A stretch of 42,318 bases of DNA from Granulosicoccaceae bacterium (GTDB taxonomy: Bacteria; Pseudomonadota; Gammaproteobacteria; Granulosicoccales; Granulosicoccaceae). Under the pieces are notes generated by a model. That model saw only the letters and a list, made by a program, of their open reading frames with translations, did not search any database and had not been told where the DNA came from. The position numbers and the translations under genes are program-made. Location: NCBI GenBank assembly GCA_020629835.1, contig JAHDCO010000025.1, positions 1 through 42,318 of the forward strand. The letters run 5' to 3'. This document shows, piece by piece, positions 32,853-33,695 of the stretch. How positions within the stretch are numbered: position 1 is the stretch's first letter; every line of letters begins with the position of its first letter.

Positions 32853-33695
32853 ATGACCAAGTACGTCAGTGCAATCTTGATGGTGTTGCTCATAGGTGGC
32901 GAGGCTCACGCTAACACCGCCAATGAGTGCGGTATCACAGGTGGCAACTTAGCCGAAGCTAAAGCGTTGTACGCGGAAAGCTGTCCGAACATACCACGAG
33001 CTGATTGCGATCCTGTCGCGGGTAGCAGTGATTGGTATTGTTCCAGTGAACAAGTGGGTGTTAATGCTCCAGGGATTGGAGGTAACAGTACGACCACATC
33101 AACCACGGCTGCGAATGGAACAACCACTACGGTGCCTTTACCTGACCCTGCTCCCGTTCCTGTGCTCCCTGAATCCAGTACCAGTGAGTGTTACGCCACC
33201 GGGGCGAATCTGGCTGACGCCATCGAGGCTTACGACGCCTCCTGTCTGGCACCACGAGTGGATTGCGATCCACTTGGCGGTGCTTGGTCATGCAGTTCTG
33301 GTGTTATCGGGCAAGGTGCCCCAAATGCAAACAGTGTATCCACTCAAACCAGCAGTACACCTCAGACTACCTCTGTTTACACCGGCCCCATACCCAAAGA
33401 ATCGTGGGCCGACTCATACGCGTACAACGGTGTTTGCTATATGCAGACCAACGGTGATCATGGGGTATGGGAGAAAACCACGCGCACACCAACCGGACAG
33501 TTAGTTACCGTAAGACAGGTTGCCAATTTAATTGAAACAGGCCCAGGTCAGCAATTTGCCGACGCTCTGTACAACGACGTACAATGCGGCAACGGCCCCG
33601 CTAATTCAGCCTACGATGAAGTGGAATGCCCGGCACGAGTCGACCAAGGCCGCGCGGGTTGCCATAGAACTGGTCCGAAGTGGAAGTTTAAGTAA
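32853..33695 (+). CDS. Orphan exported protein with twin cysteine repeats
   Basis: No family is recognised. The 280-residue product has a signal peptide (cleavage near residue 20, GEAHA). Two similar cysteine modules follow, at 26-74 (C26, C44, C52, C63) and 113-158 (C113, C131, C138, C147). They share GxNLAxAxxxY, PRxDCDP and a CSS ending. Linkers rich in Thr/Ser/Pro (79-110, 160-180) separate the modules and a C-terminal domain of about 95 residues with four more cysteines (C195, C245, C259, C270). Twelve cysteines fit six disulfides, implying periplasmic or secreted location. It stands alone between ugpC and a convergent gene. Confidence 0.85.
   Translation: MTKYVSAILMVLLIGGEAHANTANECGITGGNLAEAKALYAESCPNIPRADCDPVAGSSDWYCSSEQVGVNAPGIGGNSTTTSTTAANGTTTTVPLPDPAPVPVLPESSTSECYATGANLADAIEAYDASCLAPRVDCDPLGGAWSCSSGVIGQGAPNANSVSTQTSSTPQTTSVYTGPIPKESWADSYAYNGVCYMQTNGDHGVWEKTTRTPTGQLVTVRQVANLIETGPGQQFADALYNDVQCGNGPANSAYDEVECPARVDQGRAGCHRTGPKWKFK

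What the first reader, a model, noticed from the sequence alone, without database searches (positions are those of the whole stretch)
32853..33695. Orphan exported protein with two cysteine modules on Thr/Ser linkers
The 280-residue product has a signal peptide, two homologous four-cysteine modules (26-74 and 113-158), low-complexity linkers and a third cysteine domain. The module pattern C-x17-C-x7-C-x10-C, then C-x17-C-x6-C-x8-C, with shared GxNLAxAxxxY and PRxDCDP, does not match a family I know. Twelve cysteines fit six disulfides. It lies alone beside a glycerol-phosphate importer.
Basis: partly seen in the sequence, partly recalled or inferred. Interest (0 to 1): 0.55.

Follow-up and report, generated by a model that had tools for sequence, protein, structure and literature searches.

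The report
Secreted protein with unnamed cysteine domains
A seaweed-associated marine bacterium appears to export a small protein built from two kinds of cysteine-rich domain that have no name in the domain libraries searched, that sit next to sugar-degrading and sugar-binding domains in other proteins, and that probably help the cell hold on to seaweed or slime polysaccharides.

Summary
It is not an orphan. It has two copies of a ~50-residue four-cysteine module (A) and one ~100-residue domain (B). The protein matches nothing in Pfam, NCBIfam or PDB sequences. A recurs in Granulosicoccaceae and a few other bacteria, on GH16, GH12, carbohydrate-esterase, BNR_4 and haloperoxidase-type proteins and on an unnamed hydrolase-like domain. 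B occurs in seven phylum-level lineages, joined to F5/8 type C, CBM6, CBM10, CBM60, CBM96, lectin-like and Ig domains, and in three phage contigs. AlphaFold models B with high confidence (pLDDT 95.9, pTM 0.86); no similar solved structure was found. In one study whose MAG names give the source, the 27 B-carrying MAGs found all bear seaweed codes. B's usual second and third of six cysteines are jointly absent here, suggesting they pair. Best reading: an enzyme-free, secreted glycan-binding protein of an algal epiphyte, built of two undescribed domain families. Binding is inferred, not shown. The glycerol-phosphate importer beside it looks incidental.

The parts
32853..33695 (+). whole gene: A-A-B protein, 280 aa, probably secreted
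32853..32912 (+). putative Sec signal peptide, residues 1-20, A-x-A at the end
   Evidence: inspection; no predictor run
32919..33080 (+). module A copy 1 (residues 23-76; Cys 26, 44, 52, 63)
   Evidence: alignment A2; matches to A regions of other proteins with P0001 alone as query; AlphaFold model pLDDT 86.2, pTM 0.68
33081..33179 (+). Thr/Ser/Pro linker 1
33180..33332 (+). module A copy 2 (residues 110-160; Cys 113, 131, 138, 147)
   Evidence: alignment A2
33333..33392 (+). Thr/Ser linker 2
33393..33692 (+). domain B (residues 181-280; Cys 195, 245, 259, 270; four-Cys subtype)
   Evidence: matches in other proteins with P0001 alone as query; alignments A1 and A3; AlphaFold model pLDDT 95.9, pTM 0.86

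Best explanation
The gene makes a Sec-exported, enzyme-free, multi-module polysaccharide-binding protein of a macroalga-associated Granulosicoccus. Two small disulfide-rich A modules and one B domain sit on flexible Thr/Ser/Pro linkers. Shown: the modules are real, belong to two sequence families unnamed in Pfam and NCBIfam, and recur next to carbohydrate-active, carbohydrate-binding and surface domains in many bacteria. Inferred: the mature protein is secreted or surface-held, each module binds a glycan (algal wall polysaccharide or the bacterium's own exopolysaccharide), and three modules on one chain give avidity, for adhesion or for holding partner enzymes and glycans near the cell.
For: Module A in Granulosicoccaceae is fused to GH16, SASA carbohydrate esterase (2 proteins), BNR_4, right-handed beta helix, GH12 with CBM10, a second BNR_4, a VCPO-type haloperoxidase and DUF1800. 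On 21 of 34 contigs with an A match there is also a match to an unnamed hydrolase-like domain. Of 65 B proteins scanned, F5/8 type C is on 12, T9SS tail 13, FRG1-type 10, Big_7 9, CBM6 2, CBM10 2, RicinB lectin 2, DUF5060 2, CBM60 1, CBM96 1. B sits on a GSDH-PKD-CBM6-CBM60 protein and on DUF5060 proteins of Microbulbifer and Arenicella. One A-A-B homolog that also has the hydrolase-like domain (L045) lies among capsule-export and glycosyltransferase-like genes (my reading). Habitat: the 27 distinct MAGs among the loci whose names follow the scheme of PMC10233909 all bear macroalgal sample codes, including 12 not titled Granulosicoccaceae or Granulosicoccus.
Against: No binding data exist for either module; guilt by association only. 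B's many invariant polar residues (D7, S8, N61, Q64, N71, D75, E76; D22, H23, D62 nearly so) could be a catalytic or metal site instead. Some partners are not glycan-related (cytochrome c in L042; DUF1800), and some B proteins have no other Pfam domain (L026, L029, L036). In a group of Granulosicoccus proteins a divergent B sits N-terminal to an outer-membrane-barrel-like region (Pfam scores below cut-off), which fits anchoring as well as binding. The habitat test assumes that seawater and sediment MAGs are as well represented in the collection, which I could not check, and the rows are related.
Confidence: 0.6

Rival explanations
1. A and B are protein-protein or cell-surface attachment modules (dockerin-like or matrix-scaffold), not glycan binders: they dock enzymes and adhesins to the surface or to each other.
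For: A divergent B precedes a low-complexity middle and an outer-membrane-barrel-like region in a group of Granulosicoccus proteins. The partners are diverse, including cytochrome c and haloperoxidase-type domains. CBM10, a partner, is itself described in Pfam as 'cellulose or protein binding'.
Against: Many partners are carbohydrate-active or lectin-like. No cognate receptor domain was looked for.
Confidence: 0.22
2. B is a small secreted hydrolase or other enzyme, its conserved D/H/N/E residues forming an active or calcium site.
For: Of 67 B rows, D7, S8, N61, Q64, N71, D75 and E76 are invariant and D22, H23, Y60 and D62 nearly so, more than a pure disulfide scaffold seems to need. Some proteins have B and no other Pfam match (L026, L029, L036).
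Against: B is appended at either end of multi-domain proteins, several with catalytic or binding domains of their own. The fold searches showed no similar solved enzyme, which is weak evidence.
Confidence: 0.13
3. The protein is a secreted effector or antimicrobial of unknown target, its modules being toxin-like cysteine knots.
For: Small, probably secreted, acidic (pI 4.4), cysteine-rich.
Against: The neighbours read as importer and housekeeping genes; homologous modules often sit on carbohydrate-active proteins. Not tested directly.
Confidence: 0.04

Closest known systems
Carbohydrate-binding modules (CAZy sense), e.g. CBM6, CBM10, CBM60, CBM96
   Same: discrete modules on linker-rich, multi-domain enzymes and enzyme-free proteins; A and B occur in proteins with these families
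   Different: no Pfam match of the window protein, and the best CBM stretches in homologs lie outside A and B; binding untested; predicted A fold (one helix, three short strands) is not a beta-sandwich
F5/8 type C (discoidin) surface proteins
   Same: the commonest partner of B apart from the sorting tail (12 of 65 proteins)
   Different: no sequence relation found; B normally has six conserved cysteines (four here)
FlhF FliG-interacting domain and RcsF (fold level only)
   Same: similar arrangement to module A: 9en1_A Z 4.8, rmsd 2.0 over 42; RcsF 2y1b Z 3.5, rmsd 2.1 over 44
   Different: 7% and 11% identity, best Foldseek E 0.59; a common arrangement, no kinship shown
Nucleoside hydrolase / Sde182-type NH-like domains (recalled, for the partner domain of A)
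   Same: invariant D-x5-DD near the start and a late Asp resemble the calcium motif as I recall it
   Different: no convincing Pfam or PDB profile match; no match in the window's genome

Membership tests
Carbohydrate-binding module (functional class) | discrete module joined to carbohydrate-active or binding domains | tested here: met
   for the families, not for this protein, which has no such domain: A on GH16, GH12, SASA, BNR_4; B with F5/8C, CBM6, CBM10, CBM60, CBM96
Carbohydrate-binding module (functional class) | demonstrated carbohydrate binding | not testable with these tools
   needs purified protein and binding assays
Any existing Pfam CBM family | profile match to the A or B region | tested here: not met
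   0 Pfam families for P0001 at E up to 10; in homologs the best CBM stretches lie outside A and B
CBM10 (PF02013), small Cys module | profile match | tested here: not met
   no match in P0001; the best CBM10 stretches in L021, L048, L103 and L166 fall outside A and B; further stretches are not listed by the tool
FlhF FID fold | same fold as module A | tested here: inconclusive
   Z 4.8 over 42 residues, not significant in Foldseek
Module A family (named here) | C, C, DCD, W-x-C with the spacing of alignment A2 | tested here: met
   both copies. The profile E-values are circular, as the window rows are in the alignment; with P0001 alone as query, A regions of other proteins match, e.g. G004:C86 over residues 22-184, E 6.8e-22
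Domain B family (named here) | core DS......C......YND.QCG.GP.N...DE..CP..........C | tested here: met
   the 16 invariant columns of A3 include the window row; with P0001 alone as query, e.g. G027:C15 over residues 163-278, E 5.5e-30
Domain B family (named here) | six cysteines (usual form) | tested here: not met
   second and third absent together in the window and 7 other rows; present together in 74; single loss 0 of 82

The most novel reading that the evidence does not exclude
Domain B is the founding case of an undescribed fold: a small, disulfide-rich glycan-binding domain spread across at least seven phylum-level lineages of bacteria, many of them seaweed-associated, and carried by phages. 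It would be a shared molecular tool for living on macroalgae, with this protein as an enzyme-free binder that combines B with a second undescribed CAZyme-associated module.
Probability: 0.4. Interest if true: 0.8.

Novelty: new variant of a known kind. Interest (0 to 1): 0.58.

Why it matters
Granulosicoccus is named as a common alga-associated symbiont (PMC9238374, passages only), yet my searches of the held papers for Granulosicoccus with 'carbohydrate-binding' or 'adhesin' returned only 1 and 2 papers (listings). Two undescribed, mobile, CAZyme-linked modules would mark candidate polysaccharide enzymes and adhesins in these bacteria that the domain libraries searched here miss, and B gives a crisp structural target: a confident model with no solved relative found.

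Tried and rejected
Pfam, NCBIfam and PDB sequence search of the protein: nothing. PADLOC on the protein and on one NH-like partner domain: nothing. tblastn of one B sequence (L022) in plasmid and phage records: nothing, although IMG/VR held three contigs with B. PDB profile searches: best E 8.1 for B, none for A. Foldseek for B: best E 1.9 in PDB and 0.62 in BFVD; VIA-align 2: none of 245 chains with Z 2 or more. This does not show that the fold is new. Foldseek for A: best E 0.59. Tree of 82 B rows: few columns, many forks open; the eight four-Cys rows hang on an unresolved fork (four alone, four in one group), I ran no test of a single clade, and one origin is possible, so the joint Cys absence may be one event. 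The glycerol-phosphate importer as a functional partner: not conserved in the one close ortholog compared. Disulfide pairing in A: of 74 distinct hits 65 keep all four Cys, 7 partial ones were dropped, one lacks the first two together, one lacks only the first: too few to decide. Papers with the motif letters: none; searches returned no paper, one search listed 8 of 13 papers, none opened. The printout was cut, so many homologs between L041 and L066 were seen only through Pfam and pattern scans. Two of the 13 A contigs without the NH-like domain (G004:C85, G016:C55) were fetched, but my pattern did not pick out their frames, so their partners are unread.

Full report
What is there. Codon usage fits the neighbouring genes and no other frame (the nine neighbours also made the table). 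The mature protein is about 26.8 kDa, pI 4.4 if cut after residue 20.

Where it comes from. The window lies on contig C36 of a 4.34 Mb, 149-contig genome.

Not an orphan. With the whole protein as query, 34 of 57 genomes (own included) match at E <= 0.01, all in the same family. The closest syntenic ortholog (54% and 50% identical over two pieces) shares the 3' gene order (phosphoribosyltransferase, pyrF, yciM, ihfB, rpsA, cmk) but not the upstream importer. By profile, B is in 32 of 57 genomes: the own genome, 24 of 26 others of the genus, 7 of 9 of other genera of the family, 0 of 21 from other families. Module A is in 21 of 57: own, 15 of 26, 5 of 9, 0 of 21. In an even sample of the class, B matched 4 of 369 genomes and A 4 of 369, own included in both. 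Both profiles contain window rows, so their scores on the window itself are circular.

Domain B. A scan of genome contigs with B found 102 pattern matches, 67 confirmed. The scan demanded QCG[NH]GP[AP]N, so divergent members are missed. Titles and tree labels name Pseudomonadota (Granulosicoccus, Arenicella, Microbulbifer variabilis, Marinagarivorans and others), Bacteroidota (many Aquimarina, Tenacibaculum), Actinomycetota (Acidimicrobiales), Myxococcota, Verrucomicrobiota, Bdellovibrionota and Gracilibacteria. The Gracilibacteria copy is open only with TGA read as Gly, at eight positions, which argues against a mis-binned contig there. Several other hosts are named strains (Microbulbifer variabilis ATCC 700307, Aquimarina species), so this is not only MAG noise; for the phyla known only from MAGs mis-binning is not excluded.

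Partners of B. Pfam over 65 proteins (P0001 plus 64 of the 67; L047, L087 and L088 left out as broken or partial, and several of the rest cut by contig ends) gives Por_Secre_tail 13, F5_F8_type_C 12, FRG1 10, DUF7910 10, Big_7 9, CBM6 2, CBM10 2, RicinB 2, DUF5060 2, Collagen_bind_2 2, GSDH 1, CBM60 1, CBM96 1 and others (25 of 32 families shown). Single cases: GSDH-PKD-CBM6-CBM60-B (L041), DUF5060-Collagen_bind_2-B (L039, L040), cytochrome c-B (L042). L026, L029, L032 and L036 gave no Pfam match at all, and I saw no Pfam family placed on a B region. A divergent B heads a group of Granulosicoccus proteins with a low-complexity middle and a C-terminal region weakly matching outer-membrane barrels (below cut-off); the own genome has a cut-off relative at C133.

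Structure of B. AlphaFold on the window's own B with 66 relatives gives mean pLDDT 95.9 and pTM 0.86. Foldseek finds nothing similar in PDB (best E 1.9, probability 0.02) or BFVD (best E 0.62), and VIA-align 2 finds no chain with Z 2 or more among the 245 it compared. So no similar solved structure was found; that does not prove a new fold.

Cysteines of B. The usual form has six. In 67 rows cysteines 2 and 3 are both present in 62 and both absent in 5, never singly; in 82 distinct domains 74, 8 and 0. The window is one of the eight, and so are all three phage copies. This fits a Cys2-Cys3 disulfide, but the tree allows one event.

Module A. 24 rows share C, C, DCD and W-x-C. The model (pLDDT 86.2, pTM 0.68) is strand-helix-strand-strand; PDB similarities are weak and common. 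Partners in Granulosicoccaceae: on 21 of 34 contigs with an A match there is a match to a 225-residue unnamed domain with invariant D-x5-DD, H, N and late D. On the other 13: the window and its ortholog (A-A-B), GH16 (L104), SASA esterase (L103, L106), BNR_4 (L107, L164), beta helix (L109), GH12 with CBM10 (L166), VCPO-type (L161), DUF1800 (L162), and two unread. Presence of A and of the hydrolase-like domain go together across 36 family genomes (18 both, 3 A only, 2 that domain only, 13 neither; Fisher p 2.2e-5, not tree-corrected, and partly the same proteins). The window's genome is one of the three with A alone. A and B also occur together with the hydrolase-like domain in an Acidimicrobiales MAG (L032).

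Phages. Three IMG/VR contigs encode B. L154 carries it in a 767-residue frame with a signal-peptide-like start and the hydrolase-like domain, directly after a holin match and a virion structural protein match; L155 lies near phage helicase and endonuclease matches; L156 joins fasciclin, Kelch, an A-like stretch and B in one frame. Six viral loci carry the hydrolase-like domain, two of them on contigs already found with B (the others not followed up).

Habitat. PMC10233909 (passages) explains that its MAG names start with B, L, H or R for Saccharina, Ulva, Grateloupia and Gelidium, S for seawater and N for sediment, with 936 of 1,619 MAGs from macroalgae. I matched records by this name format, not by accession. 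The 31 loci so named come from 27 MAGs: R 16, L 7, H 3, B 1, S 0, N 0. Drawing 27 of 1,619 at random would give this with p 3.2e-7, and the 12 MAGs not titled Granulosicoccaceae or Granulosicoccus (two of them only 'uncultured bacterium') with p 0.0014. Caveats: the collection holds one genome per species, the share of seawater and sediment MAGs in it is unknown, and rows are related. I did not check the habitat of the other hits; several come from MAGs of other projects (Oxalobacteraceae, Burkholderiales, Myxococcota), so B is not shown to be confined to seaweeds.

Interpretation. The anatomy (export-like start, small cysteine-rich modules, low-complexity linkers, modules otherwise appended to polysaccharide-active and surface proteins, algal link) fits an enzyme-free glycan-binding protein. 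Gene existence, domain families, partners and the B model are shown; export, disulfides, glycan binding and adhesion are inferred. I score it as a new variant of a known kind: it would work like a carbohydrate-binding modular protein, but it is not filed in any existing CBM family.

Noticed in passing
L032:7191-7877, L019:1305-1967, L154:6447-7196 and others (alignment A4): An unnamed ~225-residue domain with nucleoside-hydrolase-like invariant residues (resemblance recalled), no convincing Pfam or PDB profile match, in 20 of 57 genomes and on six viral loci; often preceded by module A.
   Followed up: partly
L154, L155, L156: Phage contigs encoding B (with the hydrolase-like domain, or with fasciclin, Kelch and an A-like stretch) in large modular proteins, one with a signal-peptide-like start right after a holin: possible surface-modifying cargo genes.
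   Followed up: partly
L091, L092, L142-L149; L093 in the own genome: Group of Granulosicoccus proteins with divergent N-terminal B, low-complexity middle and C-terminal outer-membrane-barrel-like region.
   Followed up: partly
L047:8001-8300: Gracilibacteria copy of B that is open only with TGA read as glycine, at eight positions.
   Followed up: yes
L161:1759-3501: A modules fused to a VCPO-type (vanadium haloperoxidase-like) protein in a genome of the same genus.
   Followed up: partly
L045:7374-9179: A gene with A, A, B and the hydrolase-like domain sits among capsule-export and glycosyltransferase-like genes.
   Followed up: no
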